Of a stretch of DNA of 64,000 nt, positions 27,821 through 57,572 are shown piece by piece; position 1 is the first letter of the stretch, and every line of letters starts with the position of its first letter. The stretch covers positions 1 through 64,000 of the forward strand of contig CAJAVP010000106.1 of the NCBI GenBank assembly GCA_903945375.1. The letters are read 5' to 3'. Origin of the DNA: an uncultured Methylococcaceae bacterium (lineage in GTDB: Bacteria; Pseudomonadota; Gammaproteobacteria; Methylococcales; Methylomonadaceae). Position numbers and translations under genes: made by a program. The notes under the pieces are model-generated. The model was not told the DNA's origin and searched no databases. It worked only from the letters and a program-made list of their open reading frames with translations.

Positions 27821-28512
27821 TGGCTAGTGAAAATAACTTATCCCCCTTAATTTTAGGGCTTGTCAGTCGATTTTTGGTTAAAAAACTTAAGACGGTTTAT
27901 TACGGTGCGAGAGAGTCAATCGGCGAACATAAGCGCGATATTGTCGTTTATCAGGTTGAACAGACTTGTCAAAGTCTACAAAGTACGCGGGATGAATTTG
28001 CTGATGCCTTAACGCGATTTAACGGTTTAGTGAATGTCCAAGAAGCCAATTTACTGCATCGCTATCAGCAATTGAATCGTCAGTATCAGTTATGCAAAGC
28101 GAAATCCGAGGCGGTAAGTCAGCGCATTAAAGCCATAGAAGAAGTCAGTGAAGCCTTATTTGCAGAATGGGAAAAAGAGCTGGATGAATATTCCAATCGG
28201 ACATTACGCAACAGCAGTAAGCAGCAATTAAAAATGGCTAGACAACATTATGCGCGGCTAATTAAAACCATGCGCAAAGCGGAAACCAAAATCCAACCAG
28301 TGTTGAGCGCGTTTAAAGATCAGGTACTCTCGCTTAAGCATAATCTCAATGCCCGAGCGATTGCAGCACTACAGCACGAGTTTGTTGAGATGAGTTTAGA
28401 TATTTCACAATTAATTTTGGCGATGGAGCAAACTATCGCGGAAGCGAACCAGTTTGTTGCGGTTCTGGCTGATCAATCCGATCGTCCCATTAAGGCATTG
28501 CCAAAATCTTAA
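27820..28512 (+). CDS. coiled-coil protein of unknown function
   Basis: 230 residues from the ATG at 27820, which overlaps the stop of the kinase gene. No signal peptide or membrane helix. After a short N-terminal segment (FLVKKLKTVYYGARESIGEH) the protein is almost all helical, with heptad stretches around 40-110 and 115-220. I do not recognise a family. Its tight coupling to the kinase suggests co-expression, nothing more. Confidence 0.7.
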   Translation: MASENNLSPLILGLVSRFLVKKLKTVYYGARESIGEHKRDIVVYQVEQTCQSLQSTRDEFADALTRFNGLVNVQEANLLHRYQQLNRQYQLCKAKSEAVSQRIKAIEEVSEALFAEWEKELDEYSNRTLRNSSKQQLKMARQHYARLIKTMRKAETKIQPVLSAFKDQVLSLKHNLNARAIAALQHEFVEMSLDISQLILAMEQTIAEANQFVAVLADQSDRPIKALPKS

Positions 28513-28564
28513 TGTAAGATGCCGTACGCTAGGGGATATAGCACACGTTCAAACCAGAAATTAC

Positions 28565-28680
28565 ATTTTTTTCGTTCGTGGTGAGCCCCTTTAGATACCT
28601 CAATACAACGCTCTTCAACAGGCTCTCAGATACACCTCAACGCAGACCGAGCTGAGTCGAAACCAACACGATAAAAGTCA
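28565..28680. repeat. degenerate dispersed intergenic repeat
   Basis: Begins TTCGTTCGTGGTGAGC and ends near GCTGAGTCGAAACC, a decayed form of the GTTCGTGGTGAGCTTGTCGAACC repeats common between bacterial genes. A related decayed copy lies at 49936-50026. Confidence 0.4.
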
Positions 28681-28716
28681 TAGATGCTTAACCAACAGCG
28701 TTTTCAGATAACCGTC

Positions 28717-30525
28717 CTAACCCGCCTTAAACACCTGTAACAGCCAGTCTTTAAACTTATGAGCTGGCAACGGCTTAGTAAAATAAAATCCTTGGATTTC
28801 ATGACAGTTGTGACTTTTGATACACGCCAATTCTGCCTCAGTTTCAACACCTTCCGCGATTAAGCCAATCCCTAAACTCTGTCCTATTGCGACAATCGCC
28901 TTCACAATGACATTATTTGCCTTAACATTCTGAATATTCCGCACAAATGATTGATCAATTTTAATTCTATCAAGAGGAAATTGGCTTAAATAACTCAAAC
29001 TGGAATGACCGGTCCCAAAATCATCGATCGCTATTTTGATGCCTATCGCTTTTAATTCACTCATTGTTGAAACCGTTTGTAAAGGGTTAGCCATAACCAT
29101 TGTTTCCGTTAACTCCAGCTCAATATAATTTGGGTCAACCCCATACTCATAAATAATTTGCTGTACCCGCCACGAAAAATCCTGTTGTCGAAATTGAATC
29201 GCTGAAACATTAATGGCAATACGTAAGGGCGGTAATCCTTGATCTCTCCATTCGACTTGCTGACGACAGGCTTCACTGATTACCCATTCACCTATTGTGA
29301 CGATAAGACCCACATCCTCGGCCACGCTGATAAACTTACCCGGCAATAGCAGCCCTTGCTTTGGATGATACCAGCGCAATAACGCCTCAACACCAACAAC
29401 TTGGTTTGTCGTGGTGTCGATTTGCGGCTGATAAAATAATGCCAATTCTTGCCTAACAATTGCCTTTTTCAGTTCAGTGACAAAGGTATTACGCTCCGAA
29501 AGATTTTGATCAAAGCTCTCGTTAAATACCAGAAAACCATTACGTCCTTTTTCCTTAACCACATACATCGCCGCATCCGCTTTGCGAATCAGGCCATCAA
29601 CCGTATCGTCGTGATCAGGGTACAAAGCCACCCCCAAACTCGCTGTTATATTGACCTCGCGCCCCAAAATCATCATCGGTTGGCGAATTTTATCTATCAT
29701 TGTTGCCGCCACTTTTTCGGCATGAACCGCCTCCGACAAATTTTGCAGAATCACCACAAATTCATCACCACCTAGACGCGCAACGGTATCACTCTCCCGA
29801 ACACACGCACTTAAACGATGCGCGAAGTTTATCAATAATTGATCGCCAAAACTGTGACCTAAGGTATCGTTAATGTATTTAAAGCGATCAAGATCAACAA
29901 AAACTAAAGCAAATGGCTTTTTGCTACGTTTAGCCTGCTGGCAGGCTTGCATTAACCGATCCTTAAATAGCAAACGATTTGGCACACCGGTTAACTGATC
30001 ATAATGTGCTAACGCGTAGAGTTCTTGCTGTTTACGGTGGGTAATTTCTTCTAAGAGTCGGTGTCCCGTTGCCATGCCGACATAAAGTGTATTTTCGACC
30101 ACAATAAAACCATGCGCCATATGGCGCATTCCTGCATTGATCGTAATATTCGCTAAATCATCAATACTGGTATTGATATCGACAATAACGGGATCTGTCG
30201 TCATGATTTCACCGATACATTTCTTGTGGTGCAAATCACGCGCATAAGGCTTGAAAAAAATCTCAGTGAGACGCCCCCGATCAATCAAACCAACCGGCTT
30301 ATGCTGCTCATCCACAATCGGTGCTATCAACAATGACGTATTATCAATGAAAATATTCAGGACATCGAGGCAGCGAAGTTCTATCGGTATCGGTTCAATA
30401 TATTGCAGGATTTTTTGAACCGTAACCATTTGGTTTTGATTGTAAAAAACATCGACAAACTTATGACTCGAAGCGGGATCGAGTAAAACTATTTTTTTCT
30501 TAGCGCCATGTGTGGATGATTTCAT
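28717..30525 (-). CDS. CBS-GGDEF-EAL c-di-GMP turnover protein
   Basis: 602 residues, no membrane segment. An N-terminal CBS pair (about 30-155) is followed by a GGDEF domain (about 170-330) with GGDEF and a preceding RESD inhibitory site, and an EAL domain (about 345-598). EAL catalytic motifs are all present: EALLRW, the metal-binding ETM, DDFGTG and the EGVE near the end. It can therefore be a phosphodiesterase and possibly also a cyclase. CBS domains often bind adenine nucleotides, so energy status is a plausible input. It starts the block of signalling genes. Confidence 0.93.
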   Translation of the reverse strand: MKSSTHGAKKKIVLLDPASSHKFVDVFYNQNQMVTVQKILQYIEPIPIELRCLDVLNIFIDNTSLLIAPIVDEQHKPVGLIDRGRLTEIFFKPYARDLHHKKCIGEIMTTDPVIVDINTSIDDLANITINAGMRHMAHGFIVVENTLYVGMATGHRLLEEITHRKQQELYALAHYDQLTGVPNRLLFKDRLMQACQQAKRSKKPFALVFVDLDRFKYINDTLGHSFGDQLLINFAHRLSACVRESDTVARLGGDEFVVILQNLSEAVHAEKVAATMIDKIRQPMMILGREVNITASLGVALYPDHDDTVDGLIRKADAAMYVVKEKGRNGFLVFNESFDQNLSERNTFVTELKKAIVRQELALFYQPQIDTTTNQVVGVEALLRWYHPKQGLLLPGKFISVAEDVGLIVTIGEWVISEACRQQVEWRDQGLPPLRIAINVSAIQFRQQDFSWRVQQIIYEYGVDPNYIELELTETMVMANPLQTVSTMSELKAIGIKIAIDDFGTGHSSLSYLSQFPLDRIKIDQSFVRNIQNVKANNVIVKAIVAIGQSLGIGLIAEGVETEAELACIKSHNCHEIQGFYFTKPLPAHKFKDWLLQVFKAG

Positions 30526-31170
30526 AAAAAACTATTGAGGAATAGATAACCAAAGTTCTACATCATAATGATGAAAAAATGATAAGAACCCACCGTGTAA
30601 GGTATTTCATGTCTCATTTTGAATTCATAAGCTGCTATACCCCTTCCCACAGCACGTTATAGCAAACTTCTACAGTGATTGTTCGAGCCAAATCCCACTG
30701 GGAATAAACCCATAAATTATTATATTATGAGTTGTAACGACCTAACCGCTTCTAAAATACTGCGATTAAATCCTCATTCCGGCAGACCTATGGGGCACAC
30801 ATGAATTACTGGAGTCGCTAGACCACGTTAGCGAGCCCCCTTGTGCCACAGAGGGTATGACGAATGATAAAAAAACTTGTTTTAGGGGAGTAAAAAACAT
30901 ATTTTTTACTCCATTTAACGACTTGTATCGTTCCTAAGCCATGCGCCACGCGCACAATTCTACAAAACTTAACGGTGAGCAGTGAAGCTCTGGCTTGGTC
31001 ATGACCGTGTACTACTTGGTTAAGTAAAGATAGGACTAAACGATTATGCTGTAACAGGGTCGAGTAGCGATTGTCTAAATCCCCATCCACTATTATTCAT
31101 GTTATAAACGCCTGCTTATACTAGATATGTGAATACGCAGCCTGAACAATACAATCTATACTGTGAGCGA
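30526..31170. other. intergenic interval, no gene recognised
   Basis: Separates two minus-strand signalling genes. A half copy of the palindromic repeat (CGTTCCTAAGCC near 30930) is visible. The only open frame, 30818-31090 on the minus strand, lacks a ribosome-binding site and recognisable protein features. Confidence 0.4.
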
Positions 31171-33441
31171 TTAAAACTCCTCCCACTCGTCACTATCCGT
31201 TATAGCTAGTGCAGGAGTCGATATTTTTTTGGGTTTGTAGGTTTCTAATTTCCCGGGCGCAGGTGACGGTATCGTGACGTGCGGAGTATGCGTTGAACGA
31301 CGTTCCTGTTCATTACTTAGTTTAAAAACGTCGACCGTCGTCGATAAGTTTTGTGCTTGTTCAGCCATTGATTCAGCTGCCGCCGTAGCCTGCTCAACCA
31401 AGGCAGCATTTTGCTGAGTCACATCATCCATTTGTGCAATCGCTTGATTAACCTGAGTAATACCCGAACTTTGCTCAACAGAAGCATCTGATATTTCTGA
31501 CATAATCATTGTTACTCGACGAATAGAGGCGACTATTTCCTCCATAGTTCGTCCGGCTTGAGCAACTAATTTACTACCATCCTCAACTTTATCCTCAGAA
31601 TCACCGATCAATATCTTAATTTCACCTGCCGCAGAAGCCGCTCGTTGAGCAAGATTTCGAACTTCACCTGCAACCACAGCAAATCCACGCCCTTGATCGC
31701 CAGCACGCGCCGCCTCAACAGCTGCATTCAGTGCCAAAATATTGGTTTGGAAGGCGATGCCATCAATAACAGCAATAATTTCTGAAATTTTACGCGAAGA
31801 ATTATTAATATCGTGCATAGTGTCAATCACTTTTTGAACAACCGCCACCCCCTTACCCGCCACATCTGACGCACCAATTGCCAAATGATTGGCTAATTTT
31901 GCATTTTCAGTATTGGCCTGTACGGCAGTCGTTAGCTCTTCCATGCTTGCGGCGGTTTGCTCAAGGCTTGCCGCCTGCTCTTCGGTACGATGAGATAAAT
32001 CGCCATTGCCTGAGGCGATTTCTTTTGCAGCAACCGTAATCGTATCGGAAGCACTAATTATTTCTGATAGTAGTGATTTAATATTTTCTACCGTACCATT
32101 CACCGATTCTTTAACTTGCCCAAAAACGCCCGGGTAATCACGCGTAATCATTTGCGTTAAATCACCTTTTGCCAACGCTTCAACGACATGCTGAACATCA
32201 CCTAACCCTGTTTGCGTCACGTCAGAGAGACGATTTAATAGTTCGGATAAATCCCGCGCATAGCCTGCTTTACTACCGATCACCATTTTAAACGTAAAAT
32301 CGCCACGATTAGCCGCAGCATCAACCAGTTGACGCATTTCACCCACAATTTTAGTCAATGAGTCAACTGTTTTATTTACACCATCTTTAGTCTGTCCAAA
32401 CACACCTGGGTATTCATCGGTAATATGTTGACTTAAATCACCATCCGCCAGCGCCAACGCCACCCGCGTGACATCGTTTAAGCCAGCTTCCGTCGTTTGA
32501 TTCAAGCGGTTTATGGATTCCCCGAGGTTTTTTGCAAAGCCTTTATGATTCGCTAAATTAATCCGCTTGCTAAAATCACCATTGACGGCCGCTTTAACAC
32601 TGTCATCTATTTCAAGAATCAACTGGCTTAGCGCTGCTTGCATCGTGTGCATCGCCTGTAATAACTGACCAATTTCATCATTACGATCTATCTCTATCTC
32701 GTTGTTCAGTTCGCCATTAGCAATCTTTTTAGCCAGCTCAATACCTTGTACAAGAGGACTTGAAATAGATCGAACAATTATTGAGCCGACAAAACCGACC
32801 ACAACAATCGACAACAAAGCCATAAAAATAATTAAGCTACGAAGTTGCACAACCATCTCGTCGGCTTTGTATTTATCATCGTTTGCATAGTTCTGATTGA
32901 GTTCAATCAACTCATTTAACAATTTTTTTGCATCGGAAGCCATATTTTTACGCAAATCGAGCTGCTTTAAATAGTCGTTAAATAATTGTTTTTGACCTTC
33001 CTCGGTTTGATTTTTGGCTAAATGGTCAATAATAATATCCACCTCGACCTGACTTTTTTTCCATGCGTCCCAAGCCGGCACAAATTCTTTCCAGACTTTA
33101 GCCTCTTCGGATTCTTGAGGCAGCGGCTCATAGATAGCCCAACCTTTGTCTATTTGCAGCATAATGTCTTGTTTTTTTTTCAATATGCCAGCAAACTTTT
33201 CTTGCGCCTTAAAATCCTCCCTGAAGAACATCATATCGCGATTAGCCAGCCGTATTGCGGTTAAACCCTCGTTCATCATCGACAAGCCAATAATTGAAGG
33301 CAGACGGTTATCACCAATTGAATCGATAATATTAGAAAGTTTACGTGTACCATAATCACTACCTAGACCAATCACAAGCAACGTCGCAATCGACAATGCC
33401 ATCAGCGTCAGTAATTTGAATTTAATACTTAGATTTTTCAT
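31171..33441 (-). CDS. methyl-accepting chemotaxis protein with multiple HAMP-like modules
   Basis: 756 residues. TM1 about 9-27, a four-helix periplasmic sensor region, TM2 about 200-222, then a canonical HAMP domain. After it two alternating module types repeat as A-B-A-B: NGDFSKRI...GFAKNLGESINRL, DGDLSQHITDEYPGVFGQ, then RGDFTFKM...GYARDLSELLNRL and KGDLTQMITRDYPGVFGQ. The signalling hairpin has IAFQTNILALNAAVEAARAG. The C-terminus is EWEEF, a match to the xWxxF CheR/CheB-tethering pentapeptide (NWETF in E. coli). It should feed CheA-type signalling; no che genes are in the window. The sensed ligand is unknown. Confidence 0.9.
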   Translation of the reverse strand: MKNLSIKFKLLTLMALSIATLLVIGLGSDYGTRKLSNIIDSIGDNRLPSIIGLSMMNEGLTAIRLANRDMMFFREDFKAQEKFAGILKKKQDIMLQIDKGWAIYEPLPQESEEAKVWKEFVPAWDAWKKSQVEVDIIIDHLAKNQTEEGQKQLFNDYLKQLDLRKNMASDAKKLLNELIELNQNYANDDKYKADEMVVQLRSLIIFMALLSIVVVGFVGSIIVRSISSPLVQGIELAKKIANGELNNEIEIDRNDEIGQLLQAMHTMQAALSQLILEIDDSVKAAVNGDFSKRINLANHKGFAKNLGESINRLNQTTEAGLNDVTRVALALADGDLSQHITDEYPGVFGQTKDGVNKTVDSLTKIVGEMRQLVDAAANRGDFTFKMVIGSKAGYARDLSELLNRLSDVTQTGLGDVQHVVEALAKGDLTQMITRDYPGVFGQVKESVNGTVENIKSLLSEIISASDTITVAAKEIASGNGDLSHRTEEQAASLEQTAASMEELTTAVQANTENAKLANHLAIGASDVAGKGVAVVQKVIDTMHDINNSSRKISEIIAVIDGIAFQTNILALNAAVEAARAGDQGRGFAVVAGEVRNLAQRAASAAGEIKILIGDSEDKVEDGSKLVAQAGRTMEEIVASIRRVTMIMSEISDASVEQSSGITQVNQAIAQMDDVTQQNAALVEQATAAAESMAEQAQNLSTTVDVFKLSNEQERRSTHTPHVTIPSPAPGKLETYKPKKISTPALAITDSDEWEEF

Positions 33442-33713
33442 TCTGGCATTCCTAGAAAATATTTACTGAACTTAAACGCATAAAAAAATAATTCAACGCC
33501 TTAGCCGAATTATACCCTACTCTTCCTGACTCTAGCAGCCATCAATTGTCTCTTATCGCATATAATAATGAACAACGACAGGTTAGCATCACAAACGTTA
33601 ACTCAATGCAGAACACTAACTTCAAATGATTGCCGCTATACTAGAACAGTATTTTAAAAATACTAGCCACTATACAAAACATATCTGCCCGTTAATTTGA
33701 GATAAACGCAATC

Positions 33714-36059
33714 ATGAATGATTTTTTCCTTGATGCACAGGACTTAAACTTTCCGATTTACCAGAGCAGCTACGACCTGCCTATGGTGATTACCTCTGTA
33801 GTCATTGCCATGTTTGCGTCTTTTTGTGCCTTCGAAATGGTAGAACGACTGGCACACATCACACGACGCTATGTTTGGCTGCCGATTAGCTCGGTTATGT
33901 TAGGCGCTGGGGTATGGGCCATGCACTTTATCGGTATGCAAGCCCTTCAAATTGATTGTGCCGTGACTTATGATGCGTGGATTACGGGTTTATCGATGTT
34001 ACCTGGCATTTTTGCTTCCGCAGTCACCTTAAGCAGCATTGCCCTTAAACAGCCCACCTTAAAAAAACAAGTACTGAATGGTACGATAATGGCTGTAGGT
34101 ATTGGTCTTATGCATTTTTCAGGAATGGCGGCTATTCGTTTAGATGGTATTTTGCGCTACGACCTACTCTATTTTTGCTTATCCTTGGCCTCCGCTGTTG
34201 CCTTAGCTGTATTCGCCCTAATCACAAAATCTTATCTAAGCAAACTACCTCATGGCAAAATGCCCTTCATTTCCTCTGTTATAGGCGGCTGCATAATGGG
34301 TGGAGCAATATCCAGTATGCACTACATCGCCATGAAATCCTCTTTTTTCATCCACGAGCATAAAGGCGGCGATGATCATATTATTACAGCCACTCATCCC
34401 GCAGAATTAGCCATTATTGTGAGTGCGGTCACGCTATCCTTAATTTTGTTTGGGGTGCTCTTTGCTTTTTTGAACACTAAAATTGCGTTTGTCCGCAATC
34501 GCATTGATGTTATTTTAGCAACCACCAGTCATGGCTTTGTCGCAATGGATACTCAAAATTTCATTACGGAATGTAATCAGGCAATGACACAATTAGTCGG
34601 CACAACATCAAACACATTAATCGGCAAACGCTATTGTGCGTTGATCGCCTCAGACAATTGCATTGACATGCAAGGTAATTACCAAGTGGAAGCGTTAGTG
34701 CGCCGCACGGATGGCAGCACGCTCCCCTGTTTGGTTTATGGTACAGCCGTAACAGACGATCAAGGCAACTTATTGTATTCATTCGCTCTATTTAGTGATA
34801 TCAGTGAACGTAAAAAAGCTGAAAGTTTATTGATGCGCTCAGAAGCACGATTCCGGACACTGTTTGATGGCACAAGTGAAGCCGTTATGCTATTAGGTCA
34901 AGAAGGATTTTTTGATTGCAATGACGCAACCTTGGTGCTTTTTGGCTGCGTATCAAAAAATGACTTTTGCTCAAAACAGCCCAGTGATTTCTCGCCACCT
35001 ATCCAAACAGATGGCAGAGACTCTATGATTTGTGCCAATGAGATGATCACTCGAGCCATGGAAAATGGATGCAATCGTTTTGAATGGATACATCGTCGCG
35101 CAGACAATGGCAAAGATTTCCCCGCTGAGGTGTCATTAAGCAAGATGTTCTTAGAAGGTCAATCAGTCATTTTAGCAACCGTTCATGACATCACCCACCG
35201 TAAACGTTACGAAACCAAGCTTCTACAATTAGCAGAAGCACAAAGCCAGCTCCTACAATCGGAGAAAATGGCAACCATTGGGCAATTAGCCGCTGGGGTT
35301 GCACATGAATTAAATAATCCTATTGCCTTTGTCAGCTCTAACTTAGGCACACTGGAAAATTATATTAAGGATTTTCTGGAAATTATAGAACTCTACCATG
35401 CCAACGTGCCCCCTGATTTACTTGTTGACATCGAGGCCATTAAGGCAAGTAAGGATTTTGATTATCTGCTATCTGATATTTTCCAAATTGTCGAAGAATC
35501 TAAAGACGGATTGTCACGCATGAAGCGCATTGTGCAAGACCTCAAGGATTTTTCTAGGGTAGGTGAATCCGAATGGCAACCGGCAAATTTACATCAATGC
35601 CTTAACTCAACACTCAATATTGTTTGGCATGAACTTAAATATAAGTGCCAAATTATCAAGTATTATGCCGAAGATTTACCTCCAGTCTGCTGTATTGCTT
35701 CACAAATTAACCAAGCATTCATGAATTTGCTGGTTAATGCCGGACATGCCGTAGAAAAGCAGGGGGAGATTAGTATCACCACCCGCATCAATCCGACCGA
35801 TAACACCACGGTTCAGATTTTCATTGCCGATAACGGAATCGGTATTGCACCCGAAAACCTGAAACGTATTTTTGATCCCTTTTTTACCACCAAACCGGTT
35901 GGGCAAGGCACTGGACTTGGACTGTCGATAACCTGGAGTATTGTTGATAAACATCACGGCACTTTAGACGTCAACAGTACCTTGGGCAAAGGTACTACCT
36001 TTATCCTAACCTTACCGATCGATCACCAAAAAAATGGACTGGAAACGGAAAAAACATGA
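33714..36059 (+). CDS. MHYT-PAS-PAS histidine kinase
   Basis: 781 residues. The N-terminal MHYT domain (about 20-250, roughly seven helices) has the repeated motifs MHFIGM, MHFSGM and MHYIAM; the family is proposed to bind copper and sense oxygen, CO or NO. Two PAS domains follow (about 270-370 and 385-500). HisKA has the phospho-acceptor His531 in AAGVAHELNNP, and the HATPase has NQAFMNLLVNAG, DNGIGI and GQGTGLGLS. No receiver domain is attached. The gene overlaps the next kinase by 4 bp. Its partner regulator is probably among the REC proteins downstream. Confidence 0.92.
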   Translation: MNDFFLDAQDLNFPIYQSSYDLPMVITSVVIAMFASFCAFEMVERLAHITRRYVWLPISSVMLGAGVWAMHFIGMQALQIDCAVTYDAWITGLSMLPGIFASAVTLSSIALKQPTLKKQVLNGTIMAVGIGLMHFSGMAAIRLDGILRYDLLYFCLSLASAVALAVFALITKSYLSKLPHGKMPFISSVIGGCIMGGAISSMHYIAMKSSFFIHEHKGGDDHIITATHPAELAIIVSAVTLSLILFGVLFAFLNTKIAFVRNRIDVILATTSHGFVAMDTQNFITECNQAMTQLVGTTSNTLIGKRYCALIASDNCIDMQGNYQVEALVRRTDGSTLPCLVYGTAVTDDQGNLLYSFALFSDISERKKAESLLMRSEARFRTLFDGTSEAVMLLGQEGFFDCNDATLVLFGCVSKNDFCSKQPSDFSPPIQTDGRDSMICANEMITRAMENGCNRFEWIHRRADNGKDFPAEVSLSKMFLEGQSVILATVHDITHRKRYETKLLQLAEAQSQLLQSEKMATIGQLAAGVAHELNNPIAFVSSNLGTLENYIKDFLEIIELYHANVPPDLLVDIEAIKASKDFDYLLSDIFQIVEESKDGLSRMKRIVQDLKDFSRVGESEWQPANLHQCLNSTLNIVWHELKYKCQIIKYYAEDLPPVCCIASQINQAFMNLLVNAGHAVEKQGEISITTRINPTDNTTVQIFIADNGIGIAPENLKRIFDPFFTTKPVGQGTGLGLSITWSIVDKHHGTLDVNSTLGKGTTFILTLPIDHQKNGLETEKT

Positions 36060-37837
36060 CTATTTTGAACTGGAATAATCAATTGGCACTCGGTATTGCG
36101 TCCGTTGATGAGCAACATCAACATTTGATCGATTTAACCAATCAGCTGGATGAAGCGCTTGCCATTGGCGCTGAACATGACGCACTCATTAAAATCATCA
36201 AAGGCTTAGTGGATTATACGGTCTATCATTTCCGTCATGAGGAGCAACTCATGGAGGCGGCACAATTTAATCCCACTATTTATGCAGAACATAAAGCGGA
36301 GCATGATGAGTTTGTCACTAACATGCTAAAAACACAGGAAAACCTGCAATCCGATCAACAACAGCTTTCAGAAGAGCTGATAGATTATTTAGTCAATTGG
36401 CTTTGCCATCATATTCTTAATACGGATAAAAAAATGGCGCTCAGCCTAATCAATGGCATCGATGCTGCTGACATCAAAATCGATAGTCAAGAACATCATG
36501 ACATTATGCAAAGCAATCTGCATTCTGCTTTGCGTGAAAGTGAAAGTCGCTTTAAAGAACTCGCGGAGAATATCTCGGCGTTAATCTGGATCACCAACAC
36601 CAATCACGTGCCTATTTTTTGTAATCAATTTTGGTTTAACACCTATCACTTACAAGCCAGCACGATGACGCGCCAGCAATGGCTTAATGCGATTCATCCC
36701 GACGATCGTGATATCGTCACCGAGTCCTATCGCCGTGCCGCTGAGGAGCGCAGTAAATTTAAAATCCAATACCGATTACAAAATGCCGACGGAAAAATCA
36801 CTTGGATTTATGAAACCGCTGTTCCTCGTATTCAAAAAAATGGGCGTTTTGCAGGATTAATGGGCTGCGGTATGGATATTACCTCGCAAAAACAAGCCGA
36901 AGCGGTGTTAACCCGCAGTAACGCGCAACTGGAAGATGAGGTTGCCAAACGTACACAAGAGCTGTTCGACATTAATCGCACTCTAGAATTTGAAAAAAAT
37001 CAGCAATTATTATTGAACAATCAGTTAAAAGAGGCACAAATACATTTAGTACAAGCCGAAAAAATGGCATCTATTGGACAATTAGCCGCCGGTATCGCTC
37101 ATGAAATCAATAATCCATTGGGCTATATCAACTCCAATCTTTCCAGTTTAAAGCAGTACACCCAAGCGATGATCGACACCATCAATATGGCCGAAACGCT
37201 TAGTCAGCAATTGCCGGCCGATCATCCTGATGTTCTGCGCTTTAAACAATTACAAAAAAACAGCGACCTTAATTTTTTAAAAACGGATTTACCTGACCTT
37301 GTTAATGAATCCATTGAAGGCGTTACCCGAACCAAAAAAATTGTCCAAGACTTACGCGACTTTTCACGGATTGATAAACCGGAGTTAGGCCTATTTGATG
37401 TCGAAGCCGGCTTGGATGCTACGCTGAATATTGCCCATAATGAACTGAAGTATAAAGCGCAAGTAATTAAAGATTATGCCGGCTTACAGCCTTTTGAATG
37501 CGTGGGAGCACAACTCAATCAAGTGTTTTTAAACTTGCTCGTCAACGCAGCACAAGCCATTGAAAAATTTGGAAAAATTTATGTACGAACCGGGTATTTA
37601 GATGCCGATTGGTTATGGATTGAAATCGAAGATACCGGCAAAGGGATTCCAGAAGAAATCCATGCGAAAATTTTTGACCCTTTTTTCACCACTAAACCGG
37701 TTGGCAAAGGCACTGGACTGGGCTTGTCGCTTTCCTACCAGATTATACAAAAGCATCATGGCCGAATTGAATTGGAATCAACCCTTGGAAAAGGCAGCAG
37801 ATTCCGCATCATTTTTCCCATTCATCCGAGTAAATAA
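36056..37837 (+). CDS. hemerythrin-PAS histidine kinase
   Basis: 593 residues. An N-terminal bacteriohemerythrin domain (1-135) keeps all likely di-iron ligands: His21, His58, Glu62, His79, His83, His119 and Asp124. A PAS domain (about 165-290) and a coiled coil (295-335) lead to HisKA with His349 in [11 protein letters not shown] and an HATPase with [21 protein letters not shown] and GKGTGLGLS. Hemerythrin domains bind O2 reversibly, so the kinase is likely O2- or redox-responsive. It lies in a 4-bp overlap with the MHYT kinase, whose catalytic core is very similar, suggesting duplication and swapping of the sensor. Confidence 0.92.
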
Positions 37838-37855
37838 TGCATGAACAGTACACTC

Positions 37856-38746
37856 CTAATTGGCCGAAATAACTTGATCGGCAAATGCGCGTGCATGTTC
37901 GGCCAGACTTAATGCGGAGCCAATAGGGACAGCCAATATTTCTAAGGCAACGCGAAGATTAATGTCTACCGCAGAATCATCAGCACAACTAGACGCCATA
38001 ATAACCAGCAAGTTAGCCGAATAAATCAATAATCCAACCGAAGGCGTGCTATCGGCTAAGGGAGCTGTTTCGTGCTGCTCAATGGCTTGCTGAATCACTT
38101 CCGGAAAATTCCAATATAAGGCGGCTTTACTACCAATCTCAGTATGGTCAAAAGTTAATATCTTCCGTTCATTTTCGGTAATCTCATGGTGAGATTTCGC
38201 AAATGAGCCCTCAGTTTGCGTATTAAAAATCTGCCTTACGATCTCCTCGGGATAAAGGAAGACTATCACCAATTGCCCAATATCGTGAAGCAAGCCCGCT
38301 GTAAAGGCGACATCCGGATTAAAACCGGTGCTGCGAGCCAATTGCCGACTACAATCGGCGACGGCCATACTGTGATGCCAAAAATCTGTATAATCAAAAT
38401 GATGCTGCTGGCTGACCAACATTTGCGAAAAACAAATACTAATCAGCAAATCGCGTACCCGGTTAAATCCCAACACCACAATCGCCTCACGCAATGACCC
38501 GATTTCTCTGGACATGCCATAGAATGACGAATTGGCAATACGCAGCAAACGCGCGACTAAAACAGGATCTCTTCCAATTTTATCAATCAGACTCACCATA
38601 TCCTGCTGCCCTTCTAGTTGTTGCAAGGCATCCATTAAAATAGTGGGCAATGAAGGCAATTCAGAAAGACGAGAAAACTTATTCTCCGCATCCTGTGCAT
38701 CAAAGCTAACAGAGCCTGCACTGCTGTTTCCCGATAGTATTTCCAT
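37856..38746 (-). CDS. HDOD domain protein
   Basis: 296 residues. The HDOD domain (about 28-225) begins SELPSLPTILMDALQQLEG and contains DPVLVARLLRIANSSFYG and AGLLHDIGQLVI; the family is related to HD phosphohydrolases but usually lacks full catalytic ligands and acts in signalling. It starts one base after the stop of the REC-PAS gene, so the two are translationally coupled and probably act together. Confidence 0.9.
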   Translation of the reverse strand: MEILSGNSSAGSVSFDAQDAENKFSRLSELPSLPTILMDALQQLEGQQDMVSLIDKIGRDPVLVARLLRIANSSFYGMSREIGSLREAIVVLGFNRVRDLLISICFSQMLVSQQHHFDYTDFWHHSMAVADCSRQLARSTGFNPDVAFTAGLLHDIGQLVIVFLYPEEIVRQIFNTQTEGSFAKSHHEITENERKILTFDHTEIGSKAALYWNFPEVIQQAIEQHETAPLADSTPSVGLLIYSANLLVIMASSCADDSAVDINLRVALEILAVPIGSALSLAEHARAFADQVISAN

Positions 38747-38747
38747 A

Positions 38748-39593
38748 TCAATATACCTTAGTAGGTGAGAGTACGATTATCGTGCCTTTAGAGCGGCTAT
38801 GTAAGCCCATAACGTCAATCCAAACGTGCATATTCTGACCTTCAATGACATGCAACGAGCCGTTAACGAAGGCAAAGGTATCATTGAGTCGTAAGTTTTT
38901 TACTAAACCCAACAAAGCGACCGGCAAACACTGAGCCGGTAAACCCAATAAGCTCTCGCTAGGATAACGTCGAAACAGTGCATCGGCGCAGCGATTTGAG
39001 ATTGCGATCATGTGTTGATCATCAATACCAATAATAGCAACCGGTAAATGTTCCAAAATTTCTTGGGAGATTTCCAGCATTGTAATGTTTTTTGTGATTT
39101 CACGGGTTTTATCCGCCACCTGTTGCTCTAAATTTCTATTTAAGCGACTCAACTCTTGATTAACTTCTTGAAGCTGAAGGGATAGACGTTGATTCTCCTG
39201 TTTTATTTCATAACGCTGAAACGCTTCATCGGTTAAAACGCGCAGCTGTTCATCATCCCAAGGTTTAGATAAAAATTTATAGATCGCCCCTTCATTAATC
39301 GCACTGGTCACGGTTTCTATTTCCGTATAACCAGAGAGGACAATTCGCACGGTTTTGGGATAAAGCACTTTAACCTTACGCAAAAACTCCACCCCAGTCA
39401 TTTGCGGCATACGTTGATCGGATATAATGACACCGATATCATAATGCGCTAATAAATCCAATCCTTCTTTACCACTTGCCGCAGTAAAGATTGTATAACT
39501 ATTTTTTCGTAAGGTACGTTTTAAGGCACTGAGTATATTCGGTTCATCATCAACCAATAATAAATTACGGGGGAAATTATTTTCAGCAGTCAT
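38748..39593 (-). CDS. response regulator, REC-coiled coil-PAS
   Basis: 281 residues. REC domain (about 8-125) with acidic DDE (15-17), phospho-acceptor Asp59 in ISDQRMP and Lys110 in SKPW, all canonical. A coiled coil (about 128-170) leads to a C-terminal PAS-like domain (about 175-275). There is no DNA-binding or enzymatic output, so it may relay to the coupled HDOD protein. It is divergent from the second REC gene at 39755. Confidence 0.9.
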   Translation of the reverse strand: MTAENNFPRNLLLVDDEPNILSALKRTLRKNSYTIFTAASGKEGLDLLAHYDIGVIISDQRMPQMTGVEFLRKVKVLYPKTVRIVLSGYTEIETVTSAINEGAIYKFLSKPWDDEQLRVLTDEAFQRYEIKQENQRLSLQLQEVNQELSRLNRNLEQQVADKTREITKNITMLEISQEILEHLPVAIIGIDDQHMIAISNRCADALFRRYPSESLLGLPAQCLPVALLGLVKNLRLNDTFAFVNGSLHVIEGQNMHVWIDVMGLHSRSKGTIIVLSPTKVY

Positions 39594-39754
39594 AGTCCAC
39601 CTGAAGGCATTAATTCGATAGCTTCCAAGAAAAACTTTATTATCCTTGATATACTCCTAATAAACCATTACTAACCAATAAAACAACCCGCAGCTAGAGC
39701 AATAATGCAAATTCTTTCGCAAAGCTCCCCTTATTCGTATTAAAGCCAGTCTTT

Positions 39755-41140
39755 ATGAACGAATTATTGTTAGAACCCAGAGCCACGCTCTTACTTGTTG
39801 ATGACGAGCCTAATATCCTAAAGTCATTACAGCGTTTATTTCGTAGTGAAAACTATATTATTTACACGGCTGAAAATGGGGTTGCCGGTCTCGCCCTATT
39901 ACAACAGCAAGCTATTGATTTAATTATCTCAGATATGCGAATGCCCCAAATGAATGGGGCTGAGTTTCTCGCACTGGCTGCCGAATTATACCCTGACACC
40001 ATTCGTATTTTATTAACCGGCTTTGCGGACATTGAGTCAACCATCGCTGCTGTTAATAAAGGTAAAATTTATAGTTACTTAAATAAACCCTGGGAAGACA
40101 ATGAGCTAAAAATTCATATTGCTAATGCGCTTGAACAAAAACAGATGCGCGAAGAGCGTCAACAATTATTTGAGATTATCAATCAACAAAATGCCCAGCT
40201 AAAAGACTTAAACGCGCATTTAGAAGACAAGATTGAAGCACGTACCGCCCAACTTAAAGCGACTTTAAACAAACTTGACCGCGCCCATAAATCATTAGAA
40301 AAACAGTACACCGACACCGTATTGGCTTTTGCAAAAATCATTGAAATGCGCCCTGGCATTAAAAGCGGGCAATCGAAATATATTGCCGAAAAAGCAGTAT
40401 TAGTCGCACGGGAATTAGGTGTTTCAGCTGAAGATAAAAAAAATATTTTATACGCGGGAATGCTCATGCAAATTGGTAAAATGAGTTTGCCGGATAAACT
40501 ATTGTCTCAATCCTTCCACCTTATGTCTTCATCAGACAAACAGCATTATTTGCGACATGCGGTTGAAGGTGAGTCACTTTTGAATGGCTTATCACAATTG
40601 AAAGCCGCCTCACGCATTATTAGACATCAATATGAACGCTACGATGGATCCGGCTTCCCTGATAGTTTAACTAAACACAACATACCCTTAGGTTCCCGCA
40701 TTCTTAATATCATTCGGGATTATGTTGCGTGCTTAGAAGGCTCAATGACAGGCGTCGAGATGCCGGTTGCGGCTGCTTTAGGACGATTGATTATTCGCAA
40801 AGAAAACTATTATGACCCAGAAGTGACCGATGCTTTCATCAAAGTCCTTAATGACTCATCGACCGATATGGAGACGGAGCTACCAGAAATAGAAAAGTCA
40901 TGGAAAACGAGTACGGTACTGCCCGATGAGAACCGTTATGTTCCACGCCCTGTTATCGAGGTACTTTGGTCACAACTTGAAGCGGGAATGGAAATTGAGG
41001 GGGTTTACTTTGAAAACAAGCCCTTTATCAGAAATTGTATAATTAACGAAAAACACCTTCACAGCATTGCTGCCTTACGAGAAAACACGGGCAAAAATCC
41101 TGTTGTCAAAATTCGTTTAGGGGCGAGAATGGACAATTAA
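39755..41140 (+). CDS. response regulator, REC plus degenerate HD-GYP domain
   Basis: 461 residues. The REC domain has DDE, Asp60 in ISDMRMP and Lys111 in NKPW. A coiled coil (about 128-185) joins an HD-GYP-like domain (about 185-370). In place of the HD pair it has Met238-Gln239 in AGMLMQIGKMSLPD; the second region keeps RHAVEG and RHQYERYDGSGFP, with HHE and GYP altered, and the last Asp motif is DYVACL rather than DxxDAL. The domain is therefore probably not an active c-di-GMP phosphodiesterase but could bind ligands or partners. It lies opposite the REC-PAS gene. Confidence 0.85.
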   Translation: MNELLLEPRATLLLVDDEPNILKSLQRLFRSENYIIYTAENGVAGLALLQQQAIDLIISDMRMPQMNGAEFLALAAELYPDTIRILLTGFADIESTIAAVNKGKIYSYLNKPWEDNELKIHIANALEQKQMREERQQLFEIINQQNAQLKDLNAHLEDKIEARTAQLKATLNKLDRAHKSLEKQYTDTVLAFAKIIEMRPGIKSGQSKYIAEKAVLVARELGVSAEDKKNILYAGMLMQIGKMSLPDKLLSQSFHLMSSSDKQHYLRHAVEGESLLNGLSQLKAASRIIRHQYERYDGSGFPDSLTKHNIPLGSRILNIIRDYVACLEGSMTGVEMPVAAALGRLIIRKENYYDPEVTDAFIKVLNDSSTDMETELPEIEKSWKTSTVLPDENRYVPRPVIEVLWSQLEAGMEIEGVYFENKPFIRNCIINEKHLHSIAALRENTGKNPVVKIRLGARMDN

Positions 41141-41189
41141 ACGGTCTGTGCTTAGTCTCAAAATACGCACAAAATATAAAAATAAAAGC

Positions 41190-41218
41190 GGAACAAGCCG
41201 TAAGACTTAGCTTGTCCC
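41190..41218 (-). terminator. terminator after phoU
   Basis: GGAACAAGC pairs with GCTTGTCCC (one mismatch) around an 11-nt loop. On the minus strand it is followed by CTTTTATTTTTA. It lies about 65 bp after the phoU stop and probably ends the pst operon. Confidence 0.6.
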
Positions 41219-41281
41219 ACCTTGAGAATACCCTCAAAAGACCATCTTGCCCAAACAATTTAAGATGGCTTTATGTGAGAT

Positions 41282-41992
41282 CTAATGATTTATTTTTTCT
41301 TCTAATTGGTGTTGAGTCGAATGTCGAACATCTTCACCTTTTACTATGTAAATTAAATGTTCGCAAATATAGCACGCATGATCACCAATTCGCTCTAAGG
41401 CACGTACCGTCCAAAGCACATCTAACGCGCGAGTAATGTGTCTCGGGTCTTCCATCATCCGCGTAATCAATTGTCTTAAAATATTGTCATATTCACGATC
41501 AACATTCTCATCCCGCTCGGTAATTTGCGACAAGTTAGCCAAATCTAACCTAGCAAAAGCGTCTAAGGCATCATGCAACATACTTTTGACTAATTCAGCC
41601 ATGTGCTCAATTTCATAATAGGTAACCTTGCCATTGCCACCACCTAGCTGAATCGCCATTTCTGAAACCCGCTTAGCTTTGTCCCCTACCCTTTCAAGTT
41701 CATGAACAATCTTGATGACTGACATTAATAAGCGCAAATCAAAAGCAGTCGGCTGTCTCCTTGCCAAGATTTCCGTACATTCTTGATCTATCGCCATTTC
41801 CATTTCATCAACCTGATTATCTTGCTTGATAACCACTTCAGCAATTTCGATATTACCTGTTGTAAAAGCCTGCACAGCCAAATCGATTTGCTGCTCCAGC
41901 AAGCCACCCATAATCAAAACTTTATTACGGATGTCCTCCAGTTCTTTATTAAATTGTTCAGAAATATGGTGTCCGAGTTTATTGCTGTCCAT
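41282..41992 (-). CDS. phoU: phosphate signalling protein PhoU
   Basis: 236 residues, helical, with the two PhoU three-helix repeats (about 15-105 and 120-205) and metal-binding acidic patches (ELERVGDKAKRVSEMA and ALERIGDHACYICEHL). PhoU links the Pst transporter to the PhoR-PhoB system and limits phosphate uptake. Last gene of the pst cluster, 11 bp after pstB. phoB/phoR are not in the window. Confidence 0.96.
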   Translation of the reverse strand: MDSNKLGHHISEQFNKELEDIRNKVLIMGGLLEQQIDLAVQAFTTGNIEIAEVVIKQDNQVDEMEMAIDQECTEILARRQPTAFDLRLLMSVIKIVHELERVGDKAKRVSEMAIQLGGGNGKVTYYEIEHMAELVKSMLHDALDAFARLDLANLSQITERDENVDREYDNILRQLITRMMEDPRHITRALDVLWTVRALERIGDHACYICEHLIYIVKGEDVRHSTQHQLEEKINH

Positions 41993-42003
41993 CGTTTGCC
42001 CCT

Positions 42004-53494: not shown

Positions 53495-54859
53495 TTAGGG
53501 TAATTTTATATTTAAGGAATGCAATTTTCGATACAAGTGTGTTCGCTCAATACCTACCGCGACGGACAATTTAGCAACGCTCCCGCCCGTGCGTTCCAGA
53601 TGATATTCCAAATAAGCCTTCTCAAAATGATCCCGCGCATCTTTAAGGGGTAAATTAAAAAAATCAGGCACTAACGACACGCCACTCATATCTGTTGCTA
53701 TCGAGCCGAGTGAAGCTTTGACTTCTTCCAATTCAATATCTTCACCTACGCCTAAAATCATGAGTCGTTGTACGAGATTTTTTAATTCGCGTACATTGCC
53801 ACGCCAATTGTAATTGCGTAAAAAGTTTTGCGCGGCCATAGAAAATCGGCGAAACGGCAATTTATCCTGATTGACAAAAAAATCAACATAAAAACTCAGC
53901 AGCATAGGGACATCTTCGCTATGGCTACGCAAAGGGGATATTTCGAGTGTGACTTCGTTTAATAAATAATATAAATCCTGACGAAAACGTCCTGATTTAA
54001 CATCCTCATCCAGAGGTATTCGTGTCGATGAGATGATTTTCACATCAAACCGTACCGCTTCACTGCCGCCCACTCGTAGAAAAGAGCTGGATTCTAACGC
54101 ACTGAGTAGTCTTAATTGCGTTTCCTTATCCATACCGCCGATCTCACTTAAAAACAGAGAGCCTTTATGCGCTCTTTCTAATAAGCCCGGATAAATTTTG
54201 CCACCCATTTCTTTACCAAAAAACTCAACCGCCGAGTTTTCAGATGAAATGCTACCTACCGCAATATCTACAAATGGACCATCACGGTGAGCACTATTGG
54301 TGTGTAAGTAACGCGCATATAATTCTTTACCAACCCCAGGCTCGCCAATTAACATGACACGCGCATCATGTTTGGCTAGGCGCTTGATTTGATCTTTAGT
54401 GCGAGCGACCGTTGCACTTTTTCCCACTGGCTCAATATCTAGGACTTGTTGCGGCTTAAGCCCAGCATTGACCAACTGCTGTGTGCCTGCTTCTAAGGCA
54501 CGCTCAACGATTAACAATAATTTTGCGAGTGACAAAGGTTTTTCAAGAAAATCATAAGCACCCAATCGCGTTGCTTCAACCGCAGTTTCAACTGAACCAT
54601 GACCCGACATCATAACCACCGGACACAGTAAGCCGTCTTCCGATGTCCACTCTTTTAATAATGTAATGCCATCTGTATCGGGCATCCAAATATCTAACAA
54701 AATCAACTCTGGATCGACAGATTTTTTTAACATACGTGCGATCGCAGCATTTTCTGCCATCGTCACCTGATAGCCTTCATCTTCGAGAATTTCACTGACT
54801 AATCGACGAATATCCGGCTCATCGTCTACGACTAATAAGCGTTGCTTGTGTGTATTCAT
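53495..54859 (-). CDS. ntrX: NtrX-type response regulator lacking the sigma-54 contact motif
   Basis: 454 residues: REC domain with Asp56 in LLDIWMPD and Lys in EKPL, an AAA+ domain (about 140-380) and a C-terminal Fis-type helix-turn-helix (about 405-450, VAVGIERTHLYRKL). The Walker A is GEPGVGKEL. The loop that normally reads GAFTGA is replaced by MGGKIYPG and Walker B is LFLSEIGGM rather than LFLDEI, so sigma-54 activation is unlikely; NtrX proteins without GAFTGA are known to act without it. It follows ntrY by 11 bp. Confidence 0.9.
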   Translation of the reverse strand: MNTHKQRLLVVDDEPDIRRLVSEILEDEGYQVTMAENAAIARMLKKSVDPELILLDIWMPDTDGITLLKEWTSEDGLLCPVVMMSGHGSVETAVEATRLGAYDFLEKPLSLAKLLLIVERALEAGTQQLVNAGLKPQQVLDIEPVGKSATVARTKDQIKRLAKHDARVMLIGEPGVGKELYARYLHTNSAHRDGPFVDIAVGSISSENSAVEFFGKEMGGKIYPGLLERAHKGSLFLSEIGGMDKETQLRLLSALESSSFLRVGGSEAVRFDVKIISSTRIPLDEDVKSGRFRQDLYYLLNEVTLEISPLRSHSEDVPMLLSFYVDFFVNQDKLPFRRFSMAAQNFLRNYNWRGNVRELKNLVQRLMILGVGEDIELEEVKASLGSIATDMSGVSLVPDFFNLPLKDARDHFEKAYLEYHLERTGGSVAKLSVAVGIERTHLYRKLHSLNIKLP

Positions 54860-54870
54860 AATAGTGCACC

Positions 54871-57018: not shown

Positions 57019-57572
57019 ACAGTCCACGCGCTAGACAAATACCATTGCTGATTAAAATAAGTGATCGGCCGTAATGGTAAGGGGAGGGCTTCATTGTCAA
57101 AGTCAATTTTTAGCGCGACAACTTGATGTTGTGCTGGCTTGAGTATTTTTGCATCAAGAAAAGGCAAGTCATTTAAGGTGGAAATCGAATCTAGTGCTGA
57201 GGCCAAGCTCACAAAATTATAGTCAGCCTGCGTGTCTTTGTGACTCACCCGATACATATTCAATAACGCGTGATATTGCAATTGATAGTGTAAGTGTTTT
57301 TCTGCAAGAGTTTTATTCCATAAAAAATCACGCACTAACTGGCTTTTGATGTGTACCGTCCAGAACAACGCGACACCATTTTGTAACGCCTCCATCGCTT
57401 TAGGGCTGAGTCGATAATTGATGTTAGCTGACAAGACATATTGCTCGCCTTTCAGTGCCGTAACGACGGATTTAACTTCCGCACCATAGCTTTCTGTCGC
57501 TGCACTAAGCACTGGTGAGCAGAACAAAAAACTGATAAAAAATAATACGTTAATGCTTACGGAGCAAGGCAT
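57000..57572 (-). CDS. DUF4390 family exported protein
   Basis: 190 residues from the ATG at 57572; the open frame extends four codons to 57584. Signal peptide about 1-24 (ending VLSA). A small beta-rich domain follows, including LSANINYRLSPKAMEALQNG and WYLSSAWTVWP. The family function is unknown, but it is typically encoded between rsmB and ntrY in gammaproteobacteria, as here. It overlaps rsmB by 23 bp and ntrY by 19 bp. Confidence 0.85.
   Translation of the reverse strand: MPCSVSINVLFFISFLFCSPVLSAATESYGAEVKSVVTALKGEQYVLSANINYRLSPKAMEALQNGVALFWTVHIKSQLVRDFLWNKTLAEKHLHYQLQYHALLNMYRVSHKDTQADYNFVSLASALDSISTLNDLPFLDAKILKPAQHQVVALKIDFDNEALPLPLRPITYFNQQWYLSSAWTVWPLTK

What the first reader, a model, noticed from the sequence alone, without database searches (positions are those of the whole stretch)
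33714..41140. Hemerythrin and MHYT kinases set beside HDOD and REC proteins: possible oxygen-to-output relay
Two translationally coupled kinases with similar catalytic cores differ in their sensors: MHYT (membrane, proposed O2/CO/NO) and a complete di-iron hemerythrin site. Next to them lie HDOD, REC-PAS and REC-HD-GYP-like proteins with intact REC sites. The kinases lack receivers, and the RECs lack kinases, so they are plausible partners. I know no described system of this composition.
Basis: partly seen in the sequence, partly recalled or inferred. Interest (0 to 1): 0.65.

Follow-up and report, generated by a model that had tools for sequence, protein, structure and literature searches.

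The report
Oxygen-sensor kinases wired to c-di-GMP regulators
In methane-eating bacteria, a kinase with a built-in iron-based (hemerythrin) oxygen or redox sensor sits in a conserved gene block with two response regulators and an HDOD protein; it looks like a known type of c-di-GMP control system whose sensor has been exchanged, which would tie oxygen level to settling or moving.

Summary
The five genes are real and as described, in a Methylovulum-like methanotroph: MHYT kinase and hemerythrin (Hhe) kinase (4-base overlap), HDOD, REC-PAS, and REC with an HD-GYP-like domain. The last belongs to NCBIfam's NosR family (464 bits, cut-off 400); its HD pair is lost in 19 of 19 aligned relatives, as in published Burkholderia NosR. 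In this genome the Hhe kinase core's nearest relative is the MHYT kinase core, and the two receivers are the two best NosR-model matches. Four of the five genes form a same-direction run in Methylobacter; elsewhere the same slot holds GAF-PAS or REC-PAS kinases. Sensor and core of the Hhe kinases have conflicting histories, with a break just after the phospho-histidine. The MHYT kinase is an optional partner, seen beside the Hhe kinase only in the window's genus. The genome has no FIST/NosP match, so the nitric-oxide label of 'NosR' does not transfer. The Hhe kinase type was reported in 2025 as Bhr-66, near response regulators. Verdict: real and conserved; a new variant of NosK-NosR / HnoK-HnoB-HnoD c-di-GMP systems. 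Signal, phosphotransfer and output are inferred.

The parts
33714..36059 (+). MHYT-PAS-PAS histidine kinase, no receiver; second, optional input
   Evidence: ORF; Pfam; MHxxxM motifs at 70, 133, 202 and H531/E532/N535
36056..37837 (+). Hemerythrin-PAS histidine kinase (Bhr-66-like), complete seven-ligand di-iron site, phospho-His H349 in AHEINN
   Evidence: ORF; Pfam; ligands; NCBIfam bact_hemeryth 116 against 84 bits; PDB match to bacteriohemerythrin 4xpx E 2.1e-14
36056..36059 (+). ATGA stop/start overlap of the two kinase genes
   Evidence: coordinates
37856..38746 (-). HDOD protein; H125, H154-D155 and H225 conserved in 17 of 17 rows
   Evidence: Pfam
38748..39593 (-). REC-PAS response regulator, REC of NosR type (226.6 bits on the REC part only)
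   Evidence: PAS seen in the orthologue of L087
39755..41140 (+). NosR-family response regulator: REC + degenerate HD-GYP domain
   Evidence: NCBIfam NF053512 464 bits, cut-off 400; HD to MQ
39594..39754 (.). Divergent intergenic region between REC-PAS and NosR; possible shared promoter region (not shown)
   Evidence: one weak sigma-70-like match at 39615-39643, total matches below the shuffle mean
28717..30525 (-). CBS-GGDEF-EAL protein with both motifs intact: candidate c-di-GMP enzyme target, not part of the conserved block
   Evidence: Pfam; motifs

Best explanation
The block is a NosK-NosR-like c-di-GMP two-component hub with an exchanged sensor. Inferred steps: a change in O2 or redox state (possibly NO) at the di-iron site of the Hhe kinase is passed through PAS to the phospho-His helix and sets the kinase/phosphatase balance (HExxN motif present). 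Phosphate goes to two sister receivers: the NosR-type protein, and REC-PAS, whose gene is one base from HDOD. The NosR-type protein has lost its HD-GYP metal ligands, so it would not cut c-di-GMP; it would act by binding and tuning a c-di-GMP enzyme, as HnoD tunes HnoB. In some sister blocks that enzyme is a REC-GGDEF-EAL in the same gene run; in the window the nearby CBS-GGDEF-EAL is a candidate. The overlapping MHYT kinase adds a membrane input to the same receivers. The likely outcome is control of attachment and motility in oxygen-methane counter-gradients. Shown here: gene content, motifs, conserved gene order, closeness of the two kinases and of the two receivers within the genome, sensor/core conflict. 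Not shown: ligand, phosphotransfer, output.
For: (1) NosR family membership over the curated cut-off; degenerate HD-GYP in 19 of 19 rows, as in Burkholderia NosR (HG-GTP), which NosK phosphorylates (PMC12570481, passages). (2) In G000 the two best NosR-model matches are the window's two RECs, 464 and 226.6 bits, next 129.6; with the Hhe core as query the best other core is MHYT's, 248 bits, next 72 (not run the other way round). (3) Of 25 family genomes with an Hhe-kinase match at E <= 1e-100 (among 121 searched), 17 have the NosR gene within 2.2 kb, 15 of them as the next match on the same strand with 110 bp or less between matches; by longest-ORF starts L095 overlaps by 4 nt and L096 by 13 nt. 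(4) HDOD (E <= 1e-40) was found in 14 of 121 family genomes; REC-PAS is adjacent in 14 of 14, a kinase of this family is next to HDOD in 13 of 14, and NosR (11), REC-GGDEF-EAL (2) or a GGDEF-EAL fused to REC-PAS (1) stands in each block. (5) REC-PAS/HDOD/kinase/NosR in the same order and strand in 3 other families of the class: L118, L119, L130. (6) Di-iron ligands complete in 18 of 20 Hhe rows.
Against: No biochemical evidence. In 5 Methylotuvimicrobium-type genomes (G029, G079, G101, G118, G132) the Hhe kinase and NosR lie far apart, in G114 and G129 no NosR passes 1e-80, and in G003 the kinase is split over contigs with NosR elsewhere: 8 of 25 do not fit. In L036 and L089 the hemerythrin has lost H79 and H83; L093 shows Q at the phospho-His column. 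The two window RECs share only 7 of 15 positions in the helix that usually sets kinase choice (role of the helix recalled). The window's kinase core is of the Methylomonas type although its NosR gene groups with Methylobacter and the GAF-slot blocks. Both kinases fall below NCBIfam's T2SS_HK cut-off and were not compared with a NosK sequence. Another output of the same kinase family, REC-MshEN-T2SSE, exists in L139, so c-di-GMP turnover need not be the only target.
Confidence: 0.62

Rival explanations
1. The Hhe kinase senses nitric oxide rather than oxygen: hemerythrin can bind NO as well (recalled), and the output family was named after NO-sensing systems.
For: The NosR family is named for NosP-NosK-NosR (PMC12570481); in Methylotuvimicrobium (L139) the Hhe kinase lies beside cytochrome P460, also noted in PMC12607906.
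Against: No FIST match in the window's genome. FIST is present in 17 of 54 genomes tested and in none of the 17 near the listed NosR gene (one search places), though some NosR genes lie at contig ends. GAF-PAS and REC-PAS kinases occupy the same slot, so the output does not fix the ligand.
Confidence: 0.2
2. HDOD and REC-PAS are the real output; the NosR-like protein is a leftover, and the system does not touch c-di-GMP.
For: REC-PAS with HDOD is the most constant pair (14 of 14 adjacent). The REC site is intact in 17 of 17 rows and the HDOD residues H125, H154-D155, H225 in 17 of 17. The NosR-like HD-GYP is dead as an enzyme by motif.
Against: NosR or GGDEF-EAL proteins stand in all 14 blocks, one as a fusion GGDEF-EAL-REC-PAS (L084). 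Degenerate HD-GYP proteins are reported to regulate c-di-GMP enzymes (PMC12570481, passage; HnoD inhibits HnoB: PMC8846402, passage). NosR also follows the Hhe kinase where HDOD and REC-PAS are absent (Methylomonas).
Confidence: 0.15
3. The two kinases serve different, unlinked partners, and the window arrangement is a recent chance gathering of signalling genes.
For: The exact five-gene set was found in one genome only; the block has mixed strands; G003 has the kinases and NosR on different contigs and no HDOD or REC-PAS match at the cut-offs used.
Against: Closeness of the two cores and of the two RECs within the genome; four of the five genes form a same-strand run in 5 of 5 Methylobacter-type (g16) genomes that carry the Hhe kinase in the sample, a further gene being inserted in G123; MHYT and Hhe kinases stay paired in G003, G004 and (MHYT end off the contig) G011.
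Confidence: 0.15

Closest known systems
NosP-NosK-NosR (Burkholderia; PMC12570481, passages seen)
   Same: Response regulator called NosR with a degenerate HD-GYP, the name of the NCBIfam family met here; kinase with an HExxN motif and no transmembrane part next to it; c-di-GMP link.
   Different: Sensor there is a separate FIST heme protein (NosP) and NosK has no recognised sensor domain; here hemerythrin and PAS are fused to the kinase, there is a second MHYT kinase, plus HDOD and REC-PAS; no FIST match in the genome.
HnoX-HnoK-HnoB-HnoD (Shewanella; PMC8846402, passage seen; degenerate HD-GYP nature of HnoD recalled)
   Same: One kinase feeding a c-di-GMP enzyme, with a further protein, HnoD, that tunes it.
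   Different: H-NOX sensor there, hemerythrin here; HDOD and REC-PAS are not mentioned in the passage.
Bhr-66 of Methylomonas denitrificans FJG1 (PMC12607906, sections 5 and 6 and passages read)
   Same: Hemerythrin-PAS-kinase-like protein of 1785 bp, response regulators as neighbours in most Methylomonas, cytochrome P460 in Methylotuvimicrobium; proposed O2-sensing two-component protein; neighbouring genes up in hypoxia on nitrate medium.
   Different: The main text has 0 hits for c-di-GMP and HD-GYP, and the parts read do not name the four-gene block. That the window kinase is its orthologue rests on architecture, length and matching neighbours, not on a direct sequence comparison.
One-component hemerythrin c-di-GMP enzymes: VcBhr-DGC, Ferrovum Bhr-HD-GYP (PMC8846402, passages seen)
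   Same: Hemerythrin controls c-di-GMP turnover by oxygen or redox.
   Different: There the sensor is fused directly to the enzyme; here it would act through phosphotransfer.
Methylobacter hypoxia cluster Hst/Hmr/NorR/Hcp (PMC6977074, passages seen)
   Same: Methanotroph, hemerythrin, low-oxygen response with a GGDEF-EAL protein.
   Different: Different genes: a free hemerythrin and a PAS-EAL-GGDEF protein; the word kinase has 0 hits in the main text.

Membership tests
NosR family (NCBIfam NF053512) | Score over the curated cut-off of 400 bits | tested here: met
   464.1 bits, model positions 1-364 of 422
NosR family (NCBIfam NF053512) | REC with phospho-acceptor Asp plus HD-GYP-derived domain, degenerate as in Burkholderia | tested here: met
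   D60 and partners intact; HD to [not H]Q in 19 of 19 rows; alignment to the HD-GYP protein 5z7c shows LHDIGK against LMQIGK and HHE against QYE
NosP-NosK-NosR system | FIST-domain NosP encoded with the kinase | tested here: not met
   No FIST match in G000
NosP-NosK-NosR system | Kinase orthologous to NosK | tested here: inconclusive
   HExxN motif shared (PMC12570481), but no NosK sequence was compared
NosP-NosK-NosR system | NO-controlled autophosphorylation and NosK-to-NosR phosphotransfer | not testable with these tools
   needs purified proteins
Bacteriohemerythrin domain | Seven di-iron ligands, 5 His, 1 Glu, 1 Asp | tested here: met
   H21 H58 E62 H79 H83 H119 D124 (ligand pattern recalled, seven ligands also in PMC8846402); 116 against 84 bits
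Bacteriohemerythrin domain | Binds two irons and reacts with O2 | not testable with these tools
   needs spectroscopy
MHYT sensor | Repeated MHYT units in a membrane domain | tested here: met
   PF03707, E 6.4e-34, three genomic stretches over the cut-off; transmembrane topology not computed
HD-GYP phosphodiesterase | HD and GYP catalytic residues | tested here: not met
HDOD protein | PF08668 over cut-off | tested here: met
   169.3 against 22.9 bits
T2SS_HK (NCBIfam NF038348) | Score over 450 bits | tested here: not met
   421.4 (MHYT kinase) and 339.8 (Hhe kinase) bits

The most novel reading that the evidence does not exclude
Gammaproteobacteria carry a standard signalling hub, REC-PAS + HDOD + NosR-type degenerate HD-GYP, into which sensor kinases are plugged interchangeably, by gene replacement and by recombination inside the kinase just after the phospho-histidine. 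In methanotrophs the plugged sensor became a hemerythrin, and in the window's genus a second, membrane MHYT kinase was coupled to it, so that one hub reads cytoplasmic and membrane oxygen-related signals and sets c-di-GMP.
Probability: 0.4. Interest if true: 0.65.

Novelty: new variant of a known kind. Interest (0 to 1): 0.5.

Why it matters
Methanotrophs that depend on oxygen live where oxygen runs out, and how they sense it and choose between staying and moving is open. This block gives a concrete, testable circuit with a cultured carrier (M. tundripaludum SV96 has the four-gene run, L023). It also shows sensor exchange on a fixed output: the Hhe-PAS half and the kinase core of the same proteins have conflicting trees, a natural experiment in how two-component sensors are rewired. 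Finally it warns that the automatic label 'NosR, nitric' should not be read as nitric-oxide sensing.

Tried and rejected
Rejected: active HD-GYP phosphodiesterase (metal residues lost). Rejected: NosRPK membership of the whole system (no FIST match). Rejected: the five genes as one operon (strands). Considered and dropped: the Methylobacter Hst/Hmr hypoxia cluster as the same thing (different genes). Led nowhere: promoter scan (9 matches, shuffle mean 20.8) and terminator scan (9, mean 8.0) gave no signal; Rfam gave no match in 28000-42000; the RECPAS and HDOD trees are poorly resolved for the window's rows; passages of PMC12810054 (Methylobacter genomes) mention hemerythrin beside an oxidase, with 0 hits for kinase or c-di-GMP. 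The regex checks for GGDEF missed motifs by pattern choice; the alignment replaces them. Literature: searches listed no paper whose title or abstract start describes a hemerythrin kinase with NosR/HDOD; three of these lists were capped (15 of 88, 10 of 21, 12 of 158 shown) and the library lacks most subscription journals. No structure prediction, no PHROGs or PADLOC search was run.
Full report
WHAT IS THERE. The window belongs to a methanotroph: its Hhe kinase is nearest to Methylococcaceae/Methylovulum records. Five ORFs fill 33714-41140. MHYT-PAS-PAS-kinase and Hhe-PAS-kinase overlap by four bases (ATGA). HDOD and REC-PAS lie on the other strand, one base apart, and the NosR-type gene starts 161 bp away from REC-PAS, divergently. 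Domains were confirmed with Pfam. The seven hemerythrin ligands, both REC active sites and three MHxxxM motifs are present.

THE OUTPUT PROTEIN HAS A NAME. The REC-HD-GYP-like protein scores 464 bits against NCBIfam NF053512 (nitric_RR_NosR), cut-off 400; the REC of REC-PAS matches the same model over its REC part only (226.9 bits). Its HD-GYP has lost the HD pair: M238-Q239 in the window, a non-His residue followed by Q in 19 of 19 rows; GYP varies (GFP in the window); the second histidine pair is QY. Published Burkholderia NosR is likewise degenerate (HG-GTP), and NosK phosphorylates it (PMC12570481, passages seen). HnoD, an inhibitor of the phosphodiesterase HnoB, is the known precedent for how such a protein can act (PMC8846402, passage seen).

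A CLOSE SET WITHIN THE GENOME. In the whole genome (G000) the two best NosR-model matches are the two window RECs (464 and 226.6 bits); the next is 129.6. With the Hhe kinase core (275 aa) as query, the best other match is the MHYT kinase core (248 bits); the next is 72. The search was not run from the MHYT side. The two RECs share 59 of 120 positions (7 of 15 in the helix after DDE), and the phospho-His helices of the two kinases 23 of 42. This is what is expected if both kinases speak to both RECs, but it is not proof.

CONSERVATION. Among 121 family genomes, 25 have an Hhe-kinase match at E <= 1e-100. Of these 25, NosR (E <= 1e-80) lies within 2.2 kb in 17: next match on the same strand in 15; separated by a 2.2-kb gap that holds a REC-GGDEF-EAL (by similarity) in G123; separated by REC-PAS/HDOD in the window. 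The 8 others are G029, G079, G101, G118, G132 (NosR elsewhere), G114, G129 (no NosR at 1e-80) and G003 (kinase split across contigs, NosR on another). HDOD was found at E <= 1e-40 in 14 of 121 and REC-PAS is adjacent in 14 of 14. Next to HDOD is a kinase of this family in 13 of 14: Hhe in G000, G034, G106, G123, G148, G157; GAF-PAS in G020, G067, G073 (split frame), G093, G118, G138; REC-PAS in G076; none in G145. NosR stands in or directly beside the block in 11; G020 and G118 have a REC-GGDEF-EAL instead; in G145 the REC-PAS is fused behind GGDEF-EAL. In Methylobacter the order is REC-PAS, HDOD, Hhe kinase, (REC-GGDEF-EAL), NosR, with gaps from -29 to 97 nt by longest-ORF starts in 6 loci measured (L018, L019, L023, L030, L034, L087).

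BEYOND METHANOTROPHS. In a sample of the class, 21 of 229 genomes have a NosR-family gene at E <= 1e-110. Of the 20 outside the window's genome, three (L118, L119, L130) carry REC-PAS, HDOD, kinase, NosR in the same order and strand with GAF kinases (in L119 REC-PAS and HDOD are 317 nt apart); L129 has REC-PAS, HDOD and NosR without a kinase between; L120 has REC-PAS, two kinases and NosR; L122 has a Hhe-PAS kinase on the opposite strand near NosR. The other 14 showed no REC-PAS/HDOD pair within 4.5 kb of NosR, some being cut by contig ends. FIST was present in 17 of 54 genomes tested and in none of them near NosR by the listed places, though a few NosR genes (G179, G234, G359) lie close to a contig end. 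So in this sample the NosR hub is not seen tied to NosP. Two or more kinases of this family in a row upstream of NosR occur also in L039, L120 and L128, so the twin-kinase design recurs.

SENSOR EXCHANGE. Window against Methylobacter Hhe kinases (7 rows): Hhe 60-72%, PAS 77-80%, core 49-60%. Window against four rows of Methylomonas/Methylotuvimicrobium type (L029, L085, L094, L095): Hhe 43-52%, PAS 52-67%, core 59-76%. Mean identity to Methylobacter falls from 83% to 22% between positions 321-360 and 361-400, while to the Methylomonas type it goes from 82% to 42%; H349 lies just before. The core tree places the Methylobacter Hhe kinases with the GAF/REC-PAS slot kinases (100/99), not with the other methanotroph Hhe kinases (whose bootstrap had not fully settled). 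The sensor data reject a tree in which the 13 Hhe rows other than Methylobacter and L122 are held together (p-AU 0.0014); the core data reject holding the window type (3 rows) with Methylobacter (7) (p-AU 7e-49) and, less strongly, all 19 methanotroph Hhe kinases as one clade (p-AU 0.005). The clades were named after seeing a tree, and in the tree, without four rows, the 19 Hhe rows and the six slot kinases (L077, L079-L083) are separable by one branch (79/86; 24 rows in neither group not counted). So the strong result is the sensor/core conflict, not the count of events.

THE MHYT KINASE. It is paired with the Hhe kinase in the window, L036 (G004) and L089 (G003), and in L016 (G011) the kinase part of such a partner is seen, its N-terminus being off the contig; L017 (G009) lacks it. 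All are in the window's genus: 5 of the 20 same-genus genomes (G000 to G019) carry the Hhe kinase. MHYT regions as such are common: 34 of 121 family genomes match at E <= 1e-20. In L036 and L089 the hemerythrin lost H79 and H83 while the MHYT motifs stayed (one conservative change at 135 in L089), which suggests that the pair can shift its weight from one sensor to the other. L121 has a different MHYT kinase beside a REC kinase and NosR.

PRIOR ART. PMC12607906 (sections 5 and 6 and passages read) describes Bhr-66: a hemerythrin-PAS-kinase-like protein, widespread, with response regulators as neighbours in most Methylomonas, cytochrome P460 in Methylotuvimicrobium (seen here in L139), and hypoxia-raised neighbours. 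Its main text has no hit for c-di-GMP or HD-GYP. Searches listed no paper with this combination (titles and abstract starts; three lists capped).

MECHANISM AND LIMITS. Best reading: an oxygen/redox-responsive NosK-NosR-like hub for c-di-GMP with an exchanged sensor. Ligand, phosphotransfer and output are inferred. The window's own block lacks a REC-GGDEF-EAL; the nearest enzyme with intact GGDEF and EAL motifs is the CBS-GGDEF-EAL at 28717-30525, whose involvement is a guess. A same-family kinase beside REC-MshEN-T2SSE in L139 shows that other targets exist.

Noticed in passing
L036:2795-4582 and L089:1-762: Hemerythrin domains of MHYT-paired kinases that lost three (L036) or two (L089) of seven iron ligands while the partner's MHYT motifs are kept.
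   Followed up: partly
L139:2522-12894: In a Methylotuvimicrobium genome the Hhe kinase stands beside cytochrome P460 and, on the other strand, a GAF-PAS kinase, REC-PAS and a REC-MshEN-T2SSE ATPase gene.
   Followed up: partly
L084:6587-9945: Fusion GGDEF-EAL-REC-PAS directly followed by HDOD.
   Followed up: partly
L121:3427-6477: 1016-aa MHYT-PAS kinase with a different core next to a REC kinase and NosR in another family.
   Followed up: no
window 18691-21546 and 16846-18327: 951-aa and 493-aa ORFs on the minus strand without any Pfam match at 0.001.
   Followed up: no
window 53495-57027: NtrY-like kinase with a sigma-54 response regulator downstream.
   Followed up: no
window 28717-33441: CBS-GGDEF-EAL and a four-helix-bundle chemoreceptor gene next to the kinases, on the other strand.
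   Followed up: partly
L093:6188-7948: Hhe kinase with Q at the phospho-histidine column: possible pseudokinase or misalignment.
   Followed up: no
L122:4363-6018, L131:4146-5828, L136:7955-9376: ORFs close to NosR without a convincing Pfam family (L122 and L136: none; L131: coiled-coil-type matches below their cut-offs). The L122 one overlaps NosR on the other strand and may be a chance frame.
   Followed up: no
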